This document shows, one piece after another, positions 17,653-31,166 of a stretch of 57,651 nt of DNA. The translations under genes and the position numbers were made by a program. The notes beneath the pieces were generated by a model. That model saw nothing but the letters and a program-made list of their open reading frames with translations. It was not told the origin of the DNA and ran no database searches. Origin of the DNA: an uncultured bacterium (GTDB lineage: Bacteria; Cyanobacteriota; Vampirovibrionia; Gastranaerophilales; Gastranaerophilaceae); the NCBI GenBank assembly GCA_903868125.1, contig CAIPUE010000003.1:1-57651 (forward strand), written 5' to 3'. The stretch's first letter is position 1; every line of letters starts with the position of its first letter.

Positions 17653-19002
17653 CTTTAATTCTATCACATGAGACGGCGTGTTTACAACCCTTAATTTGTT
17701 ACTAAGCCCGACACCTGAAACCCAAAGCACTTCAGAACCTTTGCAAAGCAAAATTAATTCGTCTTTGTTATGTTGGGGAACTCTTTTTGAATTTAAGTAT
17801 TTTTTAAGTTTCATAGAACCCACCATCCCGAACGGGATTATAAAATCTCCCTCGCGTCTTGTTCTAAGTGTCAAATCTATTCCAATATTATTTAAATTTA
17901 CATACGCAAAGTAAGCATCCTCGCGCGGAAAATTCAAATCGCCTTTTCCCTCGTATTTTTTTATCGAAAATGTTAAATCGGAATCAGGAAAATCATATTC
18001 TCCCTCTTTTAAAATAGTTATTTGGGAGTTATTTTTCTCCCCAAAAACTTTTGTAATTGAATAAATATATTTTGAACTTGCAAAAATCCATAAATCGTTT
18101 TTTAAAGAAAATCTTGAACCGGATTTTGATTCAAAATTACTCTTAATAAAGTCTAAAATATTAACAATTTTTTTTCTGTCGTAATCTAACCCCTCTTTTA
18201 AACAAATATCATAAATTATTTGTTGCATAACATCTTGCGAAAGTTTTTTGAATTTTTCAGTCAAAAGTTTATCCCCGACATAAACTTCTTTTTTAACCAA
18301 ATCCATATATTCATTCACGATATTCGTCTGACTGACAGCAAGTTCGGCAAGCGAATTGATTGATTTTTCGGCATGAAAATTAATTTCATCAAAAAACGGC
18401 ATAATTTTATGTCGGATAAAATTTCGTTTATAATTTATATCCAAATTTGAAGAATCACTGTTAGCGACAAGCCCGTTTGAATTGCAATAATCCTCAATCT
18501 GGGTTCTCGAAATTCCCAAAAGCGGTCTGTAAAGTGGCACTCCATCAATTAATCTCTTGGGCAAAATGCCCTGAAGCCCTTTAATTCCTGTTCCTTTTAT
18601 TATTCGATAAATAAGTGTTTCTGCGTTATCCGTTCTGCTATGCGCCGTAAAAATTGCACTATTTGCGTAATTTTTGGCATGTTTTAAGAAAAAATTATAT
18701 CTTGCTTCTCGGGCAAAATTTTCCGTTCTTTGTCCAATCCCATCAAAAGTTTCTGAAATAAATTCTATCCCTGATTTTTCGCAAAATCTCTTGCAATTAA
18801 TTTCTTCCTGCAAAGACTCCTCTGCACGCCAGTTATGGTTAAGATGTAGGGCTATGACTTTAAACCCGTATTTTTGAGAAAGCTTATTCAATATATCAAG
18901 CAAACACAAAGAATCGCAACCGCCTGAAAATCCTACCAAAAAAGTATTATCAGGACTTTTCAAAGCAAATTCATCTAAAAAATTATTAACTATTTCTATC
19001 AA
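17644..19002 (-). CDS. tilS: tRNA(Ile)-lysidine synthetase TilS
   Basis: Converts C34 of the CAU-anticodon tRNA-Ile to lysidine, using ATP and lysine. PP-loop motif GFSGGCDS at ~residues 24-31, then ALHLNHNWRAEES and FTAHSRTDNAETLIYRIIKGTGIKGL, typical of TilS; the C-terminal substrate-binding domain is present (RTRREGDFIIPFGMVGSMKLKKYL). The TTG start has GAAGGA just upstream and overlaps the triple-Clp_N gene by 17 bp, so it is translationally coupled and the last gene of its operon. Confidence 0.95.
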   Translation of the reverse strand: MIEIVNNFLDEFALKSPDNTFLVGFSGGCDSLCLLDILNKLSQKYGFKVIALHLNHNWRAEESLQEEINCKRFCEKSGIEFISETFDGIGQRTENFAREARYNFFLKHAKNYANSAIFTAHSRTDNAETLIYRIIKGTGIKGLQGILPKRLIDGVPLYRPLLGISRTQIEDYCNSNGLVANSDSSNLDINYKRNFIRHKIMPFFDEINFHAEKSINSLAELAVSQTNIVNEYMDLVKKEVYVGDKLLTEKFKKLSQDVMQQIIYDICLKEGLDYDRKKIVNILDFIKSNFESKSGSRFSLKNDLWIFASSKYIYSITKVFGEKNNSQITILKEGEYDFPDSDLTFSIKKYEGKGDLNFPREDAYFAYVNLNNIGIDLTLRTRREGDFIIPFGMVGSMKLKKYLNSKRVPQHNKDELILLCKGSEVLWVSGVGLSNKLRVVNTPSHVIELKNK

Positions 19003-20350
19003 TTTCCTTCAAAATCCCTTGTTTTATCTCAACAGCATCTACGCCTAATTGTTCCAAAGCTTTCATTGCAACAGATGTCGGCTCGGTTGTGATTGCGTAA
19101 AGAAGATGTTCGGCTAAAATTCTCGGTTTTTTATGCTTCTTCGCCTTTTGCCAAGCTACTTCAAGAACTTTTTTTGCACGTTTTGTGAATATAATTTCCT
19201 TATCATAATATTCGTTACCGTATCCGATAATTTCTTCTACAACTTGTCTCACGTCCTTAAGAGTAAGCTCCAAATCGTTTAAAACCTTGAACCCAACGCC
19301 CATACCCTCGCTCATCACTCCAAGTAAAAGCATTTCTGTCCCGACAACATTTCTGCCAAGCCGCCTTGCTTCTTTTTTTGCCAATCTTAAAATTGTAAGA
19401 GACTGTGGCATCTGCTTTTCTATCGGCTTGAGAATTCCATGAGCCAAATTGTCATCATTTACATCTAAACTTTTAAATATATCATAAGCAACACCCCTTT
19501 TTGCTTTTAACAATCCTAAAATAATATGCTCCGGCTTGATTGTAGAAGAACCAAGCTCTTTTGCCGTTTGTAAGGCTAAATCCATCATTATAAAAGCACT
19601 TGGAGTAAAGACAACTCGGTTAATATCATATTCTGACTGACGGGATGTTTGTTGAGCCAATTTTTCTTCAAAAATATCTGAATTTATACCATTTTCTTCC
19701 AAAAACTTAGATGTTTCAAAATTCTTAGCCTCCAAAACAGCTGATATTATTTGTTCGGTTCCTAATATTTCATATGTTGAATCCGAAAGCTTAGAAAAGG
19801 CGCGTTCAAAAATTTTTGACGTTCCCTCATCATCCTCAAAAAGATTTGCAGTATTTACATCTGGTGGCTCGGCATCTTTGCTATCTTCAAATTCGGGATG
19901 CTGAAGTTTTTTGGATTTTTTTTGAACAAGCTTAAACAAAATTCCTTTTGCCTGCGGGATGTCGAACTTAAAATGTTCTAAAATTCTTTCATTATAAGAA
20001 GACTCGCTGATAGCTGAAATAAATAAATGCTCAAAAAGCACGTAGCTATTACCTGATTTACTTGCTAAATCAAGCGTATTTTTGAGTAAATTTTTAAATT
20101 CATCGCTGAAAGGAACAGTTGAAGGGTTTTTCTCTGATTTTTCAAACCTTAGTTTATTTTCAACCTCTTTTTTCACCTCATCAAAAGTAACTTTAGAATT
20201 TTTAAAAAGCTTCAATGAAATTCCCTTTGCCTGTTTTACAATCGCCAGCAAAAGGTGTTCTGGTTGAACTGAAGCATTATGCATCAATTTTGACTGGACT
20301 TGGGCCTCAGTAATAACATTTATAGCTTTTTCGGTGAATTTTTCGAACAT
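18986..20350 (-). CDS. Stand-alone triple Clp_N (Clp R) domain protein, no ATPase
   Basis: Six half-repeats of the Clp N-domain are visible at roughly residues 1-75, 80-145, 185-240, 248-310, 315-375 and 385-450, i.e. three Clp_N domains. Examples are FTEKAINVITEAQVQSKLM, ARRLGRNVVGTEMLLLGVM and IIFTKRAKKVLEVAWQKAKK. The last pair is the most ClpC-like. No Walker A, AAA+ module or ClpP loop exists in the 454 residues. In ClpC these domains bind adaptors and substrates, so a docking or adaptor-competition role for Clp protease is my inference. It lies between the DUF1292 gene and tilS. Confidence 0.85.
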   Translation of the reverse strand: MFEKFTEKAINVITEAQVQSKLMHNASVQPEHLLLAIVKQAKGISLKLFKNSKVTFDEVKKEVENKLRFEKSEKNPSTVPFSDEFKNLLKNTLDLASKSGNSYVLFEHLFISAISESSYNERILEHFKFDIPQAKGILFKLVQKKSKKLQHPEFEDSKDAEPPDVNTANLFEDDEGTSKIFERAFSKLSDSTYEILGTEQIISAVLEAKNFETSKFLEENGINSDIFEEKLAQQTSRQSEYDINRVVFTPSAFIMMDLALQTAKELGSSTIKPEHIILGLLKAKRGVAYDIFKSLDVNDDNLAHGILKPIEKQMPQSLTILRLAKKEARRLGRNVVGTEMLLLGVMSEGMGVGFKVLNDLELTLKDVRQVVEEIIGYGNEYYDKEIIFTKRAKKVLEVAWQKAKKHKKPRILAEHLLYAITTEPTSVAMKALEQLGVDAVEIKQGILKEIDRNS

Positions 20351-21108: not shown

Positions 21109-22747
21109 TATCCACCCACAATTTTTCTATCGCCGAAATCATCAAATCAATCTGTTTTGAAGTTAATTCGAAATTTTTAGGCTTATTTCTTAACGCGAAA
21201 ATATTGGTCATTTTATGCTCTTCTTTATATTTAAATTTAAGCAAAACGTAATATTCATAAATGCTCTTTCGTATAATATTTTCGGACAATTGAAGCTTTT
21301 TCTTTTCCTCAAAATAAAGCGAGTACAAAAGCTGGGCATCTTCTTTATTCCCTGATAAATATTTCAAATAAGCACTCATTAAAATCCTTTTATCCAGTAA
21401 ATCTTTCTGTTCAACAGTAAAAATCTGAACAAGATTTTCACTCACAACCTCATCAAGGTTAAACTCAAAATTGTTCGTGCTTATTTTTGAGTTCAAACTC
21501 GATATCAAAAACCTGAAATCCTCGTTATAATCCACATCAAAAAACCATCTTTGGATAAAATCAAGCATGTAAATATCTTCCTGTTCGTCACCAGATAAAG
21601 TTTTTTGAACAAATTGGCTTTTCAGAGTAAGTTCAATCGGTACAACTTCAGCCTGAATATCCGACAAAAGATTTTTCCAGCAAATATATTCATAAGATAT
21701 TTGTTCTCCAAGCTTGCGGGTTAATTTTTCCGCACCGGATAAAATGGTTTTTATAACCGAAGGATTGAGATAAATGTGCTCATCCCCTTTATAAAATTTA
21801 TCCACAATTCTTTCAAATTCAAGTTTTGAGATATCATTGAATCCAAAGCAATCCACAATCCCATAAGTATCATTTATAACGATTGCAACCATTTGAATTG
21901 ATTCGTTTTCTCGCTCTCTTGAAAAAATAAGCGCCTGATTTCCATGCCCGTCCGGATAACTGGCATAAGAGCAATAGGGTTTGGAATTCAGAATACTTTT
22001 GTAAAAATCAATCGCATTATCTTCTCTAACACCTGAAATTTTCAACTTGGAAATATTTTTCTTTACTAACGTAAGCGTGTCTTCATCATAAACAAAGTCA
22101 ATAAGTTGCACAAGCGTATGTAAAGCCAGTTGAGACTTGGTTGTCCCCAGTATATCAATTGCTATTTTGCCGAGTTCACAGGTCGGATTATACAATACCA
22201 ACGGGTTTAAAATATTAGCTAAATTGTCCGAAGAATAATCTTCGCCCAGCGATTGAACGAGTATTTTTTTATCTGTCTCCGGTAATGAACTCAAAAAATC
22301 TAAAAAATCAATTTGAGCTTCGGGATTAATAATTGCGGTCTGTAAAAGTTTTTGCGTATCCGCATCTATAACTTCGTTTGGATTATCGAAATACTCTTCT
22401 AATTTTTCGTAATCTACTTTATTCCCCATATCCTTTAAGACATTTAAGAGGATAGTTTTTGTCGAATCGGACACTGACGGATTTTTCAAAATCCCCCAAA
22501 GTGCCGTTTCAAAATCCTCTTTATCACAAAGCTTGAGTGCCAAAAAGCAAATTAAAATAACCTTTTGTTCGTTTGCTTTTAAAAGTTCTTTTATTAAAAC
22601 TTCAAGAATAGTTTTTTTATCATTTTGTAAGATTAATACTCTTAATATCCCATCAACATTTGCCGCTTCAAGATTAGTTTGGAATTTGGTCAACACGGTC
22701 AAAATTTCAGCTTTTATTTGAAGTTTATTTAGCTGATTAGTTGTCAT
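21101..22747 (-). CDS. Helical-repeat (HEAT-like) protein of unknown function
   Basis: No family recognised. Residues ~1-240 are successive amphipathic helices of HEAT/ARM type (ILTVLTKF, VLIKELLK, ALWGILKNPSVSD, LVQLIDFVYDEDTLTLVKKN). Residues ~265-330 look like a mixed alpha/beta module with a degraded-enzyme feel (YPDGHGNQALIFSRER, IVINDTYGIVDCFGF), and the end is helical. ATG 22747 is chosen because it overlaps the preceding stop as TAATG; a TTG at 22765 is possible. Cytoplasmic. Lies between the ClpX-type zinc finger and ruvX. Confidence 0.7.
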   Translation of the reverse strand: MTTNQLNKLQIKAEILTVLTKFQTNLEAANVDGILRVLILQNDKKTILEVLIKELLKANEQKVILICFLALKLCDKEDFETALWGILKNPSVSDSTKTILLNVLKDMGNKVDYEKLEEYFDNPNEVIDADTQKLLQTAIINPEAQIDFLDFLSSLPETDKKILVQSLGEDYSSDNLANILNPLVLYNPTCELGKIAIDILGTTKSQLALHTLVQLIDFVYDEDTLTLVKKNISKLKISGVREDNAIDFYKSILNSKPYCSYASYPDGHGNQALIFSRERENESIQMVAIVINDTYGIVDCFGFNDISKLEFERIVDKFYKGDEHIYLNPSVIKTILSGAEKLTRKLGEQISYEYICWKNLLSDIQAEVVPIELTLKSQFVQKTLSGDEQEDIYMLDFIQRWFFDVDYNEDFRFLISSLNSKISTNNFEFNLDEVVSENLVQIFTVEQKDLLDKRILMSAYLKYLSGNKEDAQLLYSLYFEEKKKLQLSENIIRKSIYEYYVLLKFKYKEEHKMTNIFALRNKPKNFELTSKQIDLMISAIEKLWVDNG

Positions 22748-23001
22748 TATCTGCTTTTCCCCCAAAAGGCATCCAAAATCATCTGCGCTTCGGCGGAAGG
22801 CATCCTGTCATTCAATATCAAATACTGAACCGCTATCATTGTACATTCAGAACAAATATTAACATCCGGTCCTTGCACCATTTTGATTACCTGAGTGTTT
22901 GGGCGCTTGCAAAAGCTACAGTACAGAATTTCGTTTTTTTCGCCTTTAGATTCTTTGTTCGATTTCTTTGAGCCTAATCTTACTACTTTTTCATCTGACA
23001 T
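22747..23001 (-). CDS. Stand-alone ClpX-type C4 zinc finger protein
   Basis: 84 residues. After a basic head (KKSNKESKGEKNE) comes YCSFCKRPNTQVIKMVQGPD and then NICSECTMIAVQYLI: the C4 zinc-binding domain that in ClpX dimerises and binds adaptors and substrates. No AAA+ module follows; the frame ends cleanly with TAATG coupling to the next gene. First gene of the operon that also encodes the triple Clp_N protein. Confidence 0.85.
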   Translation of the reverse strand: MSDEKVVRLGSKKSNKESKGEKNEILYCSFCKRPNTQVIKMVQGPDVNICSECTMIAVQYLILNDRMPSAEAQMILDAFWGKSR

Positions 23002-24625: not shown

Positions 24626-25327
24626 TTAATTTTTATCCAATATATTTCTATTCAAAAAGTCGTTCGCAACGGTATCTTTTACTATTAATTTTAATTCAAC
24701 TCTACGGCTTTTATCATAATCTTCTTTCCCATCCACAAAGACAGGTTCTGTAAAACTTTTACCTTCAACTATGATTGTTTTAGTTAATTTATCAGTATAT
24801 TTTTTATTGTAACCGGTTTTAAAAAAATATTCAGCGACAGCATTGGCTCTTTTTAAACTTAAATCCATGTTTTTTGTAAACTGTTCTTCTTTGGATGGAA
24901 TATTTTTAAACGTTTGAGAATCCGTATGCCCCTGAATTACAACATTTGAAATCATTTTATATAATTTAGAATTTGCAAATATTGTATTAACGTAAATCGG
25001 AATGAATTTATCAAGATATTTTTTTCCCTTATCAGATAATTCGTAACTATTTATATCAAACAACTCCAAATCAGAAATCTTAACCTGTCCCGTCAGATTA
25101 TCTATCTGGACATTAATTTTTTCTTTTTGCATATTTTGTACCAATTCTTTTGCAATATCACTTTGGGCAGACTGTTGTTGGAGTTTTTGTTGGGTAAATC
25201 CGGTCATAGCAAGAATAAACAAGGTCATAAAAATTATTGCCAAACCTAATAACAGGTCAGTCATTGTTACCCAGAAAACATTCTCCTCCTCTTCAGGACT
25301 TGATTTTATAAATCTTTTGCCAATCAT
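24626..25327 (-). CDS. ZorB/MotB-like stator protein with OmpA domain
   Basis: Single N-terminal membrane helix at residues ~17-42 (VFWVTMTDLLLGLAIIFMTL) with Asp24 placed like the proton-binding Asp of MotB/ZorB/ExbD. A short linker and beta segment precede an OmpA/Pal peptidoglycan-binding domain (~residues 125-225): VIQGHTDS, then SLKRANAVAEYFF, and SRRVELKLIV. GGAG precedes ATG 25327. Forms a pair with the 3-TM protein upstream. With no pilus, flagellar or Tol genes around, I call it ZorB-like rather than MotB. It is expected to harness proton flow while anchored to the cell wall. Confidence 0.75.
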   Translation of the reverse strand: MIGKRFIKSSPEEEENVFWVTMTDLLLGLAIIFMTLFILAMTGFTQQKLQQQSAQSDIAKELVQNMQKEKINVQIDNLTGQVKISDLELFDINSYELSDKGKKYLDKFIPIYVNTIFANSKLYKMISNVVIQGHTDSQTFKNIPSKEEQFTKNMDLSLKRANAVAEYFFKTGYNKKYTDKLTKTIIVEGKSFTEPVFVDGKEDYDKSRRVELKLIVKDTVANDFLNRNILDKN

Positions 25328-25361
25328 TTTCACTCCACTTTACAATAAGACGGCTGTGCCG

Positions 25362-26264
25362 TTAAAATAAATCATCAACTATATCTGATGTTGATTTCCT
25401 TTGTTTATCAACCTTTTCCTGAAGCTTGTTTACTCCAAATATTAAATTCTCAAGATATGGAACCAAAACCTTTGCGAGACTGCTCTCCAAAGATTCTTGA
25501 AATCGATTTGGGATACTTGATAACAAATTCGTCATTGAATTATTTTGAATTTTAGTTTCTTTCAAAAGCTCTATCAAAAATTTTTCGGACGATATATTAT
25601 CAAAGAGTTTATAAAATTTTTCCTGAACTTCACTCAAAGGAAGTTTACACTTAGTATTATACAAAATTCTTTCTATCATTAAAAACGTAAGCGCAGAACC
25701 TACCGCAAGTACTGAAACCAGAGCAGCTACCTGCATGCTGGACATAAGGTTGGAAATTGATTTTATTGTTGCTTCCTGAGTCGCAAAATCTACTCCGGTA
25801 AAGGCTATGGCGATATTCAAAAACGTAAACAAGGGCCCTAAACCTGTTAAAATAGTTGGCGCAGTTTGAATTAACTTGTAATTCAATTTTGAAGTTACAA
25901 GCGTTTCCTCATTAAAGAAATATATTGGGTCAATTGTAGTTTGAATATTTTCGACAGATTGAGATATGTTCTGAAAAACAATATCATTGTTTTCGTTTTT
26001 CAAAGAAACACTCTCCGAATAAACCAAAGTATTCTTAAATTCAGCCCAAGAATTTGCCACATACGAATTCGTAGACATTAAATCATCCAATTCTTTAAAT
26101 TTGAATATTAAATCAGATTTCTTAAAGTTTTGTAATATAGCAGCAAATTCAATCAACTTTAAGTTTATGTAATTAACCTTCCTTATATAGTAAATTAAAA
26201 TAGAAAAAAACGTTACAAGAACTATCAAAATAGCCGGATTGAATAAAATTTCCAAAAAATTCAT
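25362..26264 (-). CDS. ZorA/ExbB-like stator channel protein (3 TM)
   Basis: Three membrane helices: residues ~10-28 (NPAILIVLVTFFSILIYYI), ~142-163 (TAPTILTGLGPLFTFLNIAI) and ~190-212 (VAALVSVLAVGSALTFLMI). The last two carry the small-residue/Thr pattern of MotA/TolQ/ExbB channels. Three helices fits ZorA/ExbB better than MotA (four). A ~75-residue cytoplasmic tail with coiled-coil character follows, shorter than in known Zorya ZorA proteins. ATG 26264 is preceded by GGAGAGG; a longer reading to 26312 is unlikely. Followed after 34 bp by the ZorB-like gene. Confidence 0.75.
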   Translation of the reverse strand: MNFLEILFNPAILIVLVTFFSILIYYIRKVNYINLKLIEFAAILQNFKKSDLIFKFKELDDLMSTNSYVANSWAEFKNTLVYSESVSLKNENNDIVFQNISQSVENIQTTIDPIYFFNEETLVTSKLNYKLIQTAPTILTGLGPLFTFLNIAIAFTGVDFATQEATIKSISNLMSSMQVAALVSVLAVGSALTFLMIERILYNTKCKLPLSEVQEKFYKLFDNISSEKFLIELLKETKIQNNSMTNLLSSIPNRFQESLESSLAKVLVPYLENLIFGVNKLQEKVDKQRKSTSDIVDDLF

Positions 26265-26355
26265 TTGCCCACCTCTCCTCTTACAATAATGATACCATGA
26301 ATAATACCACAAAAAAATGATTTGTTTTTTTTAAATTTGTTATATGATATTTAAA

Positions 26356-29300
26356 ATGAGATGTCCAAAATGTAATCATGATATTAATGATAAAATGCTT
26401 GTTTGTCCTAACTGCAAAAAAGTATTAAGACTTGCTTGCCCTAAATGCGAAACAATTAACAAGACAAACACTTGCAAGCGATGTGGATTTGTCATCGTTA
26501 CGAAATGTCACAAATGCGGTAAAATAAACAAAACAATAAACGGGACATGCGTAAAATGCGGATTTAGTAATTATACGAGTATTGCCATAAATTCTTCAAA
26601 CATTGATGAATTTGCATGCTTAACTATTGAATTCCCAAATTTGGCAGATATTACATCTGCACTCGGCTCTACCAAGTTAACTGATAAATTTAAAGCGAAT
26701 TTAGATCGACTAATATCAAATTATACCCATTCCGTAGGTCTTTCAAGGGAGATTATTGAGAATGTTTATATCACAAGATTTAATAAAGATGCTTCTTTTT
26801 TAACATCAGCGAACAATGCTATTCAAGCTGCAATAGAAATCCAAAACTTAATCACTGAACTAAATTTCAAGCTAAAAAAGACAATTCAAGCTTCTTTGAA
26901 ATGTAATATGGCTGTACTCAAAAGAGATATATATTCTCAACCGCAACAGTATAAATCAGGATGCAACATAAAATTAATTTATCAGCATAAACAAGATTAT
27001 AACTTGCTGAATAATCTGCAAATTATAGTGGATTCCTATGTTTATGAACAAATTTGTGACCAATATGAATTATCGACAATAACGGCAAATTTTGTTAAAA
27101 ATGAGTTGGTTACTTTTTTTGAACTGCATTTGAAAAAATATATAAAAATCCCCAAAGAAAAGGAAGATACCGACGAAGTTCAAAGCTTAGAAAAATTAAA
27201 CCTTTTTGAAGATAATTTTTCTAAAGAGGATGATACGGAAGAAGATAGTCTTTACAATATTGATTCAATAAATTTCGATGAATTAAAATGTACATTTACC
27301 AAAGTGAAATCACTAAATTTATTACCTGAAATATTAGAAAAATTCAAACTAAACAGGAAACGAATTATTTCGATAAAAAGTAAAAAAGAATTTTCCCCAA
27401 AAAGTGGTGAGTTATTAAGTCAAATAGATTCTTCTAAGCTATTTAATAACGTATATAGAGTAACATGTTATGACGAAATGAAATATAAACCTTACGGATT
27501 TTTCTATGAATTAATTTCAAGTATTTATAATTTTTCATTAAGCCCTAAAAATTTTGAAAATAATAATTTCAGCATGTTTAAAGAAATTGATTCCTCAGGA
27601 TTTATTAAGGATTTGATAAATTTAACTGAAAGAAAATTCCCGCATCCTGAAGATGTAAGATATTCTTTGTTTGACATATTTTTTAATATTTTTAGCACAA
27701 TGTCAAATTCTCTAATATATATTGAAAACTTCGAAAAAATTGATGATACCTCTTATGAAGTTTTACAATTATTCTTCGAGAATTTTAAAGAATTAGATAT
27801 AAGTTATTTAATTGTCACAGATAAAGATTTTTCATTACATAAAAATTCTCATTTTCTTTTGGCGGATTCTAATTACATAGAAATCAATGTTCAGCCCACT
27901 CCGTTTAAGGAAATCATTGAAAAAAAATCTCAAAAGTACGAAAAGATTTTAAATAGTTACTACATTGAAAAGATAGCCCAAAATACAAAAGGAAGCGTTT
28001 TATATTTTGAACAATCAATAGATTATTTATTGGAAAAAGGACTTTTGACTTATGAGCATGGTGTTTTTGATTTAGCTGCCTTTGAAAATATTTTAATCCC
28101 CACAACTTTAAAGGAATTAGTCATAAAAAGATTAAAACATCTCTCAGCGGATAAGGATGTCTGTAAAATGTTTGGCATGCTTTTGTTAATCGGTCCGAGG
28201 ATAGATTTATTAAGCGTAAAACTTTTACAAATCCAAGATGAAGCAACAATTATACAAAAATTAATCGCTAAAAATTACATATACCTACACAACAACACAA
28301 TTTATATTCAAAATTACAATCTATATTATGAAAATTTTATTTTAAGTACGCCTTTGCAATTAAAGCAAGATTTAGCTGACGAACTTTTGAATAAAGTCTT
28401 TTTATTTGACAATAGGCACCCTGTTAATGCAACTTTGTATAAGATTTTGGAGCAAGACAGACAAGAGTTTCTTACTTTAGAAAGTTTATCGCGTCTGAAT
28501 GCTTCAATGGGGGATTTTAGTGCATATTTAAATTGTAGTGTCAAATTTCTGAAAATGATTGATAATCATGTTAATGAAAATTCACAAAAATCTATTGAAG
28601 AATATAAAATGGAAGTTTACGAAAATATTTCCAACCTCTTATATAAATATACTCCAAGCAAAATTCATAATATCGCTCAAGTCATTTTAAACAATCTGGA
28701 AAAAACTACTGATGATAAAAAAGTTATTGATTTATGTAATAAAATGCTACAAGGATGCTTGATTAGTGGCAATTATTCATACGCCCTTGAACTTATCCAT
28801 AAAATACTTTCAAGGTTTTCAAACTCGTCACTTAACCCAAATGACAGCAATTTTGATATAGCATTTTTCTTAGTCTCTTTCATTAAAGTCGAGGTATTAT
28901 TTAGTATTGGCAATTTTAAAACTTGTATTGAATCGGGAGAAGAGATTTTAAATGTCATAACTGTGCCAAATCTTCCAATGCTTAAACCTAAAAACTTTTC
29001 ACTAAAACAATTTGAAGAAACTATTTTAGATGCAATGTCTTTTGTTCTTATTTCAAAAATTATATTGATGGAAGATGATTTAGAAAAATTTATAGCGAAA
29101 ACTCAAACTAATGTCGGCAAAGTCCCGAAGGTTTTTGATTTATTTTTAGTACTTCAAAAAGTACTAAAAGGTGATGAAGTAAGTCTCCCTTTTAATACTC
29201 CTGTTCAAGATGACAAATTTTTTGAAATAACGCTAAATATTATAAAAGCTTTCAGTGAAAATAAACTGAATTACAAAAAATTCGCGAGCAATATTTATCA

Positions 29301-29724
29301 GGCAAAAATTAGCGCAAAAATACGTAAATTATCACAAATTGAACTTATATGTGATTTATTAATCGGCTATTCTTATTTTAAGCTTGAGAAATATACGAAA
29401 GCATCACTTATCTATTATAACGTATTAGAAATGAGTACAGCCAACGGATTAAAAATGGTCACATATCTTGCTTGGTACCTTATGTCTATGTTAAAATTTG
29501 AACAGAATGATATTGAAGTAGCTTTTTGTATTGCAAATAATGCGATTATTCAATTGGAAAAAGATTATAATTCCAGTGATTTTCTACTCTTTTTATTTAC
29601 AACACTCTTATCAAAAATATTAATAGCAAAGAACGATAAAGTATCCGCCGAATTATGTTTAAGTAACGCTAAATTTATAAAAGAAAAATATGGACTAAAA
29701 TTCAAAATAGGAGAGATATTGTGA
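26356..29724 (+). CDS. Zinc-ribbon / degenerate cyclase / degenerate AAA / helical-repeat protein
   Basis: Residues 1-70 hold three CxxC...CxxC zinc ribbons (CPKC/CPNC, CPKC/CKRC, CHKC/CVKC). Residues ~75-285 have the length and layout of a class III cyclase domain, but metal-binding aspartates are not evident (CLTIEFPNLADITSAL where DISGFT-like text is expected). After an acidic linker, ~325-600 resembles an AAA/NACHT module without a Walker A (IISIKSKKEFSPKSGELL); a Walker-B-like strand LIYIENFEKID remains. The rest is TPR-like helices. The architecture recalls cyclase-AAA-TPR regulators, probably with binding rather than catalysis. ATG 26344 is an alternative start. Divergent from the ZorAB-like pair and overlaps glgA by 4 bp. 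Confidence 0.7.
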   Translation: MRCPKCNHDINDKMLVCPNCKKVLRLACPKCETINKTNTCKRCGFVIVTKCHKCGKINKTINGTCVKCGFSNYTSIAINSSNIDEFACLTIEFPNLADITSALGSTKLTDKFKANLDRLISNYTHSVGLSREIIENVYITRFNKDASFLTSANNAIQAAIEIQNLITELNFKLKKTIQASLKCNMAVLKRDIYSQPQQYKSGCNIKLIYQHKQDYNLLNNLQIIVDSYVYEQICDQYELSTITANFVKNELVTFFELHLKKYIKIPKEKEDTDEVQSLEKLNLFEDNFSKEDDTEEDSLYNIDSINFDELKCTFTKVKSLNLLPEILEKFKLNRKRIISIKSKKEFSPKSGELLSQIDSSKLFNNVYRVTCYDEMKYKPYGFFYELISSIYNFSLSPKNFENNNFSMFKEIDSSGFIKDLINLTERKFPHPEDVRYSLFDIFFNIFSTMSNSLIYIENFEKIDDTSYEVLQLFFENFKELDISYLIVTDKDFSLHKNSHFLLADSNYIEINVQPTPFKEIIEKKSQKYEKILNSYYIEKIAQNTKGSVLYFEQSIDYLLEKGLLTYEHGVFDLAAFENILIPTTLKELVIKRLKHLSADKDVCKMFGMLLLIGPRIDLLSVKLLQIQDEATIIQKLIAKNYIYLHNNTIYIQNYNLYYENFILSTPLQLKQDLADELLNKVFLFDNRHPVNATLYKILEQDRQEFLTLESLSRLNASMGDFSAYLNCSVKFLKMIDNHVNENSQKSIEEYKMEVYENISNLLYKYTPSKIHNIAQVILNNLEKTTDDKKVIDLCNKMLQGCLISGNYSYALELIHKILSRFSNSSLNPNDSNFDIAFFLVSFIKVEVLFSIGNFKTCIESGEEILNVITVPNLPMLKPKNFSLKQFEETILDAMSFVLISKIILMEDDLEKFIAKTQTNVGKVPKVFDLFLVLQKVLKGDEVSLPFNTPVQDDKFFEITLNIIKAFSENKLNYKKFASNIYQAKISAKIRKLSQIELICDLLIGYSYFKLEKYTKASLIYYNVLEMSTANGLKMVTYLAWYLMSMLKFEQNDIEVAFCIANNAIIQLEKDYNSSDFLLFLFTTLLSKILIAKNDKVSAELCLSNAKFIKEKYGLKFKIGEIL

Positions 29725-31166
29725 AAATTTTATTTGCATCCGCAGAAGTAAAACCATTTTCAAAAGTTGGAGGGTTGGCTGATGTTGTGGGGAGTTTGCC
29801 CAAATATATTGAAAAAGAAGCAGAAATAGCCATATTTACCCCCCTTTACGGCTGTATTGATAAAGAAAAATATAAAGTTAAATTGGTAGAAAATTCAAGA
29901 TTACAAATTAATTTTGGTTGGAATCAAAGCATTTTTCATTTGTATATGGCGACATTGCCCGGAACAAAAATTAATGTATTTTTTATTGATAATCCAAAAT
30001 ATTTCGGGTGTTTTGATACAGTATACCCTTTCAACATTGACGAAAGATATAACCACGAAAGATTTATTGCTTTTTCAAGGGCAATTTTAGAGTACACTCA
30101 ACTTTTAAACTTCAAACCTGATATAGTTCACGCAAACGATTGGCACACAGGAATGTTACCGGTTTATTTGAAAACGACCTATAGAGATAATGAATTTTTT
30201 AAAGATACAAAAACTGTTTTCTCTATCCATAATTTAGCGCATCAAGGGATGTTCTATGATGAAGTGCTTGATTTTGCCCAAATCCCAAAGAATGAAGTCA
30301 TGTATTCTTGGGGTTTAGACCTTTTCGGGCATGTAAATTGGATGAGAGGGGCAATAAATTTCTCGGATAAAGTTATAACTGTTTCACCTACTTATGCAAA
30401 AGAAATTCAAACAGTCGCAGGTGGTGAACATATTGATTGTACGTTAAGAGATAATTCTTATAAGCTTTTGGGGATTTTAAACGGCATTGATACAAAAGAA
30501 TTTAATCCTAAAACTGATAAATGTATTGCAAAAAACTTTGATAAAAAAGATTTATCAGGAAAAATTGATTGTAAAAAAGATTTATATGAAAAATTCGGAT
30601 TAAAATACAAAAAAAATCGTCCTTTAATCGGTATGGTTTCTAGGTTATCTGCACAAAAAGGATTTGAACTTTTTTGGGGACTTGATGAAGAGTTGAAAGC
30701 ACTTAATGCAGATTTTTTAATTTTGGGAACCGGAGATATGTGGCTTGAAACTCATTTTAATCATCTGTCTAATACAACTGAAAACATTAGGGCTTACACT
30801 AAATTTTCACATGAACTTGCGAATCAAATTTATGCAGGAAGCGATATGTTCTTAATGCCGAGCAAATTTGAACCTTGCGGACTAAGCCAGATGATAGCAA
30901 TGCGTTACGGAACATTACCGATTGTGAGAGTGACAGGCGGGCTGGAAGACAGTGTTATTGGACATCCTTTAAAAAAAGCCAATGGGTTTAAATTTTGGGA
31001 TTATGATGCAAGCAATATGATGAACGGCATAAAATATGCACTTGGAGTCTACAAAGATAAAGCCGAGTGGGAAAAACTTGTAAATTCAACAATGAGTGTT
31101 GATAATAGTTGGAAGACTAGCGCCAAACACTATATGGATGTTTACAACGGATTAACTTTAAGCTAA
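29721..31166 (+). CDS. glgA: Glycogen synthase (ADP-glucose type, GT5)
   Basis: Adds glucose from ADP-glucose to alpha-1,4-glucan chains. The donor-binding KVGGLADVVGSLPK is at residues ~15-28; HANDWHTGMLPVYLK, GILNGIDTKEFNP, MVSRLSAQKGFEL and PSKFEPCGLSQMIAMRYG are family signatures including the C-terminal catalytic Glu region. Length 481 is normal. GTG start overlaps the stop of the zinc-ribbon protein (GTGA), so translation of the two is coupled. No other glycogen genes are in the window. Confidence 0.95.
   Translation: MKILFASAEVKPFSKVGGLADVVGSLPKYIEKEAEIAIFTPLYGCIDKEKYKVKLVENSRLQINFGWNQSIFHLYMATLPGTKINVFFIDNPKYFGCFDTVYPFNIDERYNHERFIAFSRAILEYTQLLNFKPDIVHANDWHTGMLPVYLKTTYRDNEFFKDTKTVFSIHNLAHQGMFYDEVLDFAQIPKNEVMYSWGLDLFGHVNWMRGAINFSDKVITVSPTYAKEIQTVAGGEHIDCTLRDNSYKLLGILNGIDTKEFNPKTDKCIAKNFDKKDLSGKIDCKKDLYEKFGLKYKKNRPLIGMVSRLSAQKGFELFWGLDEELKALNADFLILGTGDMWLETHFNHLSNTTENIRAYTKFSHELANQIYAGSDMFLMPSKFEPCGLSQMIAMRYGTLPIVRVTGGLEDSVIGHPLKKANGFKFWDYDASNMMNGIKYALGVYKDKAEWEKLVNSTMSVDNSWKTSAKHYMDVYNGLTLS

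What the first reader, a model, noticed from the sequence alone, without database searches (positions are those of the whole stretch)
24626..29724. ZorAB-like stator pair divergent from a zinc-ribbon/pseudo-cyclase/pseudo-AAA protein
The pair has three-helix ZorA/ExbB topology, a membrane Asp24 in ZorB-like position and an OmpA cell-wall domain, but none of ZorC, ZorD or ZorE is near. Instead, a ~1120-residue multidomain protein with three zinc ribbons, a cyclase-like region without obvious metal Asps and an AAA-like region without Walker A shares the promoter region. This could be a Zorya-like defence system with an unknown effector or a stator for an unrelated motor.
Basis: partly seen in the sequence, partly recalled or inferred. 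Interest (0 to 1): 0.7.

Follow-up and report, generated by a model that had tools for sequence, protein, structure and literature searches.

The report
Tail-less Zorya-type stator with dead-enzyme partner
A gut cyanobacterial relative (Gastranaerophilales) carries, as a stable chromosomal trait, a small ion-driven membrane motor of the kind used by the Zorya phage-defence system, but without Zorya's sensing tail or DNA-cutting parts and paired with a large protein whose enzyme domains are all worn out, so the motor family seems to have a second, probably non-defence job.

Summary
24626-26264(-) encodes a ZorA/ZorB-type stator pair; 26344-29724(+) encodes a divergent 1126-aa protein (here ZCA): three zinc ribbons, a class III cyclase fold, a STAND/AAA_16 NTPase fold without P-loop, and TPRs. 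Solved ZorA structures are ZorA's only sequence matches, and ZorB matches ZorB best. ZorA has no Zorya tail (300 aa; ends in a conserved [VIL]D-x-LF peptide) and no ZorC/D/E/F/G is nearby. The host lineage is Gastranaerophilales (Melainabacteria). In 286 genomes of the order, ZorA and the ZCA orthologue occur together in 191, ZorA alone in 3, ZCA alone in 7, neither in 85, though often unlinked. Presence is uniform within sampled genera, single-copy, among housekeeping genes, absent from viral contigs. It is independent of FliG; MotA and TolQ/ExbB slots are filled by other genes. The sister species carries bona fide type I Zorya in addition. So this is not a Zorya system and not a flagellar stator. 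Most likely it is a peptidoglycan-anchored, ion-driven stator whose cytoplasmic load is a pseudo-STAND scaffold, with an envelope role. No biochemical function was shown; a Zorya-like defence role is not excluded.

The parts
24626..25327 (-). ZorB-type stator subunit, 233 aa from the ATG at 25327 (GTG alternative at 25333): N-terminal TM helix with ENVFWVTMTD, ion-binding Asp24; OmpA/Pal-type peptidoglycan-binding domain
   Evidence: PADLOC ZorB1 2.7e-50; Pfam OmpA 5e-10; PDB ZorB 8vvi 3e-25; Asp and PG-binding motif columns invariant in 29 relatives
25362..26264 (-). ZorA-type stator subunit, 300 aa, three TM helices, no long tail; ends in the conserved C-terminal peptide DIVDDLF (LF motif)
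   Evidence: PADLOC ZorA1 9e-22 over the first ~270 of 699 positions only; PDB hits only ZorA; Foldseek ZorA 1e-8; motif in 59 of 65 ZorA sequences
26265..26343 (.). 79-bp divergent intergenic region between zorA-like and ZCA genes; RBS AGGAGAGG for zorA on the - strand
   Evidence: sequence; promoter scan not informative above shuffles
26344..29724 (+). ZCA, 1126 aa (start may be the downstream ATG at 26356): three zinc ribbons (1-75), class III cyclase fold without conserved metal Asps (~89-261), STAND/AAA_16-like fold without Walker A (~317-517), WH-like (~552-655), TPR solenoid (671-1116)
   Evidence: Pfam DZR; AF2 model pLDDT 84; Foldseek; orthologue alignments A3, A4
29721..31166 (+). 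glgA glycogen synthase, overlaps ZCA by 4 bp; neighbour of ZCA in 68 of 80 loci, but not tied to the trio
   Evidence: Pfam Glyco_transf_5 4e-74; synteny; glgA also present in trio-negative genomes

Best explanation
The trio is a lineage-specific core module of Gastranaerophilales. ZorA and ZorB form a 5:2 ion-driven stator in the inner membrane, anchored to peptidoglycan by the ZorB OmpA domain (inferred by homology). Because the stator is anchored to the wall, its work or signal goes to the cytoplasmic side. There, in place of the Zorya ZorA tail, the stator has a short helical end and a conserved acidic [VIL]D-x-LF C-terminal peptide, which I propose docks ZCA. ZCA is a STAND-type signalling scaffold whose NTPase and cyclase sites are dead; its zinc ribbons and TPRs would hold further partners. 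The unit most likely couples envelope or wall state and ion motive force to a cytoplasmic response (envelope maintenance or signalling) rather than cutting phage DNA. Shown: the families, anatomy, residue conservation, co-inheritance, independence from flagella and Tol/Exb, contrast with true Zorya. Inferred: the 5:2 complex, physical binding of ZCA, the envelope role.
For: ZorAB kinship by sequence and fold, ion Asp and PG motif invariant. Co-occurrence 191 both / 3 / 7 / 85 neither of 286 genomes (phi about 0.92), although unlinked in more than half of the genomes examined closely; adjacent and divergent in 12 genomes of at least four deep lineages. ZorAB and ZCA trees share their main clades. 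Distance correlation 0.83-0.96, kept when RpoB, GlgA, DUF711 or a fast same-architecture paralogue is partialled out (0.63-0.94). Uniform genus-level presence or absence, one copy, housekeeping neighbours. Each genome already has a TolQ/ExbB-size protein and FliG+ genomes have extra MotA-size ones. P-loop loss in all orthologues.
Against: No complex or phenotype was tested. Independent gains or losses are few (2-3 on the RpoB tree, plus two lineages not on it), so co-occurrence is partly shared ancestry. A fast-evolving paralogue also correlates 0.935 with ZorAB, so much of the mirror-tree signal is lineage rate. Genus g9 keeps ZorAB without a ZCA orthologue (G009, G164). ZCA is operonic with glgA in most genomes, not with ZorAB. 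No direct sign of which envelope process.
Confidence: 0.5

Rival explanations
1. A Zorya-like anti-phage system of a new type: ZorAB senses envelope disturbance by an injecting phage and ZCA, in place of ZorC/D/E or ZorF/G, is the sensor or effector.
For: Closest solved and curated relatives are ZorA and ZorB; Zorya types differ in their partners, and type III uses only DUF-type partners (PMC8565338); many STAND proteins with TPRs are immune receptors (established knowledge).
Against: Uniform vertical single-copy presence over dozens of genera; no defence neighbours; no nuclease, helicase or other effector domain in ZCA; ZorA tail, required for types I and II (PMC11890865), is missing; bona fide type I Zorya exists separately in the sister species.
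Confidence: 0.2
2. A stator that powers surface motility, secretion or another machine with further, unlinked parts; ZCA is its regulator or adaptor (as with AglRQS or GldLM).
For: PG-anchored stators do cytoplasmic-side work in flagella and gliding (established knowledge); ZCA has large protein-binding repeats; the trio is retained in genomes without FliG.
Against: No linkage to pilus, gliding or secretion genes in 20 neighbourhoods (the family list is cut at 25); no motility without flagella or pili is documented for these bacteria in the papers read.
Confidence: 0.17
3. ZorAB and ZCA are two unrelated core genes that happen to share a lineage and, in some genomes, a promoter region.
For: They are far apart in more than half the genomes examined closely; ZCA is operonic with glgA; genus g9 has ZorAB only; a fast paralogue also tracks ZorAB.
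Against: Both or neither in 276 of 286 genomes; the divergent pair recurs in four deep lineages incl. other families G044, G039; partial correlation stays 0.63 (p 0.0003) with the paralogue removed, against 0.21 (p 0.14) the other way.
Confidence: 0.11
4. Alternative flagellar stator or Tol/Exb substitute.
For: Own genome has FliG.
Against: 16 ZorA+ genomes lack FliG and many FliG+ genomes lack ZorA; the number of MotA-size Pfam hits largely follows FliG, and a TolQ/ExbB-size protein is universal.
Confidence: 0.02

Closest known systems
ZorAB of type I Zorya (PDB 8qyd, 8vvn)
   Same: ZorA-type three-TM channel subunit and ZorB with membrane Asp24 and OmpA PG-binding domain; only solved family matched by ZorA sequence and best by fold
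   Different: ZorA ends shortly after the region matched to Zorya ZorA, in an LF peptide instead of a long tail; no ZorC/ZorD; vertical core gene, not in a defence island; very long branch to Zorya I of the same genomes
Zorya type III (ZorA, ZorB, ZorF, ZorG; PMC8565338)
   Same: ZorAB with partners other than ZorC/D/E
   Different: Partners there are DUF3348 and DUF2894 proteins flanking the pair; here a divergent, often unlinked pseudo-STAND protein
MotAB, PomAB, TolQR, ExbBD, AglRS stators
   Same: 5:2 ion-driven stator principle; OmpA PG anchor as in MotB
   Different: No Pfam MotA_ExbB match of ZorA; fold match only at E 0.1 or worse; canonical versions exist separately in the same genomes
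STAND NTPases with TPR (6mfv; MalT) and class III adenylyl cyclases (CyaB, Rv1625c)
   Same: Folds and domain order of ZCA; paralogues in the order have DZR, AAA_16 with Walker A in several, MalT-type TPR
   Different: ZCA lost the P-loop in all orthologues and does not keep the cyclase metal Asps

Membership tests
ZorAB stator family | ZorA and ZorB homology with ion-binding Asp in the ZorB TM helix | tested here: met
   Asp24 invariant 29/29
ZorAB stator family | ZorB peptidoglycan-binding OmpA/Pal domain | tested here: met
   Pfam OmpA 5e-10; GHTDS, LSxxRA, SRRVE columns invariant or nearly so
ZorAB stator family | 5:2 assembly and ion flow | not testable with these tools
   only monomer prediction available
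Zorya defence system (types I-III) | long cytoplasmic ZorA tail (required for defence in types I and II, PMC11890865) | tested here: not met
   ZorA 300 aa; profile matched only to position ~266 of 699; same length in 30 relatives
Zorya defence system (types I-III) | ZorC+ZorD, ZorE, or ZorF+ZorG partner genes alongside | tested here: not met
   no such match among the window genes scanned; positive control finds ZorD in L246 and L247 and ZorC in L247
Zorya defence system (types I-III) | defence-island or mobile, patchy distribution | tested here: not met
   uniform within genera, housekeeping neighbours, none in viral contigs
Zorya defence system (types I-III) | protection against phage | not testable with these tools
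   needs plating assay
Flagellar stator (MotAB) | co-occurrence with flagellar rotor (FliG) | tested here: not met
   16 ZorA+ relatives lack FliG
Flagellar stator (MotAB) | MotA family sequence (PF01618) | tested here: not met
   no match for window ZorA; other genes match
STAND NTPase | STAND/AAA_16 fold with TPR sensor | tested here: met
   Foldseek 6mfv 3e-10; AAA_16 in paralogues
STAND NTPase | Walker A P-loop | tested here: not met
   absent in 22/22 and 40/40 orthologues
Class III nucleotidyl cyclase | cyclase fold | tested here: met
   CyaB TMt 0.66, Rv1625c 0.62
Class III nucleotidyl cyclase | two metal-binding Asp residues | tested here: not met
   position 96 is D/E/K/T, hairpin 139-140 is mostly G/D/N then N/K; not conserved

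The most novel reading that the evidence does not exclude
A new functional branch of the ZorAB stator family: a vertically inherited, tail-less, non-defence rotary stator that hands ion-driven, wall-anchored force or state to a catalytically dead STAND/cyclase scaffold through a C-terminal LF peptide, giving a signalling module that may show what ZorAB-type motors do outside immunity.
Probability: 0.4. Interest if true: 0.78.

Novelty: new variant of a known kind. Interest (0 to 1): 0.58.

Why it matters
In the papers found here, ZorAB is described only as the motor core of Zorya phage defence. A core-genome ZorAB pair without tail or effectors suggests that the family has, or had, a non-immune role. 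It also gives a natural 'tail-less' comparison for how Zorya motors signal. The pair scores as well as true ZorB on defence-gene models (169 bits here, 129 for the true ZorB of the sister species), so single-gene defence annotation would mislabel these gut bacteria. The partner is an unusual case of a protein in which both enzyme folds are dead yet conserved.

Tried and rejected
Flagellar stator: FliG profile does not follow ZorA. Tol/Exb substitute: the TolQ/ExbB slot is filled in every genome. Glycogen link: glgA sits behind ZCA in 68/80 loci but is also present in trio-negative genomes and does not covary with ZorAB. Defence island: PADLOC on 127 neighbour proteins gave isolated hits only, at most one protein per listed family (25 of 148 families shown); no defence genes near the trio in the window. 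Mobile element or virus: no relative in viral contigs. Active cyclase or ATPase: motifs absent. Promoter scan: 46 sites against 33 expected, AT-rich, not informative. Mirror-tree evidence alone: weakened by the fast paralogue control.
Full report
WHAT IS THERE. The window is one contig of a 1.89-Mb draft genome in 60 contigs. The nearest named relatives are Candidatus Gastranaerophilales / Melainabacteria from animal guts. On the minus strand lie a ZorB-like gene (24626-25327) and a ZorA-like gene (25362-26264, start corrected to the ATG behind AGGAGAGG). Divergently, after 79 bp, lies a 1126-aa gene (26344-29724), here called ZCA, which overlaps glgA by 4 bp.

THE STATOR PAIR. ZorB matches PADLOC ZorB1 at 2.7e-50 and ZorA matches ZorA1 at 9e-22, but only over the first ~270 of 699 profile positions. 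Pfam's MotA_ExbB model does not match ZorA. Profiles of 30 ZorA and 29 ZorB relatives find, among all solved structures, only ZorA chains for ZorA (4e-29 to 5e-19) and ZorB before MotB for ZorB. The ZorA model (8 sequences, pLDDT 69, so moderate) matches ZorA structures at 1e-8 and TolQ/ExbB at 0.1. The membrane Asp (residue 24) is invariant in 29 of 29 and the Pal-type PG-binding motifs are conserved. ZorA has no tail. It ends in a [VIL]D-x-LF peptide present in 59 of 65 sequences. In genus g9, which lacks a ZCA orthologue, the end reads ESQLFE; this is one genus and only suggestive.

THE PARTNER. All twelve zinc-ribbon cysteines are invariant. The AF2 model from 40 orthologues (pLDDT 84) shows a beta-alpha-alpha-beta-beta-alpha-beta unit at 89-261, an alpha/beta unit at 317-517, a winged-helix-like region and a TPR solenoid. 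Foldseek gives a STAND-TPR protein (6mfv, 3e-10) and class III cyclases (CyaB, Rv1625c; TM-score on target 0.66 and 0.62). Walker A is missing in every orthologue, replaced by another conserved stretch, while an Asp and a Ser after the Walker B strand (D467, S470) are kept; the cyclase metal positions vary. Paralogues with the same build are widespread in the order, and several keep Walker A. ZCA is therefore a specialised, enzymatically dead member of a Gastranaerophilales STAND family (the loss of activity is inferred from motifs).

CO-INHERITANCE. In 286 genomes of the order, ZorA (E below 1e-60) and the ZCA orthologue (E below 1e-150) are both present in 191, ZorA alone in 3 (G009, G164, G094), ZCA alone in 7, neither in 85 (the sorting by these cut-offs is mine). 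The seven ZCA-only genomes belong to genera that otherwise have ZorA, so gaps in assembly are likely. Presence is uniform within sampled genera. Of the 30 relatives studied closely, 12 have the genes side by side and divergent (one with a gene between), including the deep lineages G044, G039 and G013; in the others they are on separate contigs or more than 20 kb apart. ZorAB and ZCA trees share their main clades. On the RpoB tree the label changes only 2-3 times, so the strength of the statistic owes much to shared ancestry. Distance correlations between ZorAB and ZCA are high (0.83-0.96), also for unlinked genomes alone (0.955), and survive removal of RpoB, GlgA or DUF711. A fast same-architecture paralogue also correlates with ZorAB (0.935); with it removed 0.63 remains (p 0.0003), against 0.21 (p 0.14) for the reverse. 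I take this as moderate, not conclusive, support for one module.

WHAT IT IS NOT. Not a flagellar stator: FliG is absent from 16 ZorA-positive relatives and present in many ZorA-negative ones. MotA_ExbB hits count one TolQ/ExbB-size protein in essentially every genome and, as a rule, one or two MotA-size ones where FliG is present. Not a Zorya system: tail and partner genes are missing. The sister species G001 and the other-family genome G044 carry, in addition, true type I Zorya: ZorA about 540-570 aa, ZorB, a ZorC-position gene and ZorD. In G044 ZorC is recognised by PADLOC; in G001 the ZorC-position protein gave no hit at 1e-20. These lie beside restriction-modification genes, in G001 also phage-like genes. 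Zorya defence needs the ZorA tail, ZorB D24 and PG binding (PMC11890865). Neighbours of the short pair are housekeeping genes (DUF711, UvrC, MurJ, penicillin-binding protein, Lgt). Outside the order only two weak hits (1e-10 to 1e-12) appear in 386 genomes of the phylum, and none in viral contigs.

HOW IT MOST LIKELY WORKS. By homology the pair forms an ion-driven 5:2 stator fixed to the wall through ZorB. Wall-anchored stators act on the cytoplasmic side (established knowledge of MotAB and Zorya). In Zorya the tail and effectors lie there; here the only co-inherited candidate found is ZCA, and the only conserved ZorA feature beyond the channel is the helical end and LF peptide. The proposal, marked as inference, is that ZCA docks on this end and that stator activity sets the state of a non-enzymatic scaffold, in envelope maintenance or signalling.

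LIMITS. No complex prediction, expression or phenotype. Gene profiling was limited to families I named. The nature of the envelope process is not resolved.

Noticed in passing
L246:7562-14832 (G001:C45) and L247:3663-10869 (G044:C200): Bona fide type I Zorya operons in Gastranaerophilales, in restriction-modification or prophage surroundings, coexisting with the short ZorAB pair; ZorC of G001 is too divergent for PADLOC at 1e-20.
   Followed up: yes
window 29721 and 80 ZCA loci: ZCA and glgA form a conserved, often 1-4 bp overlapping pair in 68 of 80 genomes although glgA is present with or without ZCA; why a signalling-type protein is coupled to glycogen synthase is unexplained.
   Followed up: partly
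L140-L159, L280-L292: A widespread paralogue family (zinc ribbons, AAA_16 STAND, MalT-type TPR, about 980-1300 aa), some with intact Walker A and some without, in most genomes of the order; function unknown.
   Followed up: partly
window 18986-20350 (-): 454-aa protein with five ClpN-domain stretches; no ATPase family matched in the same protein.
   Followed up: no
window 22747-23001 (-): 84-aa protein that consists of little more than a ClpX-type C4 zinc finger.
   Followed up: no
L278:8383-11026 (G321:C480): Distant ZorB-ZorA-179aa gene order in another family of the phylum, possibly a Zorya III-like or further ZorAB variant.
   Followed up: no
G009, G164 (genus g9): ZorAB kept without a ZCA orthologue, and the ZorA C-terminus reads ESQLFE instead of VDDLF.
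   Followed up: partly
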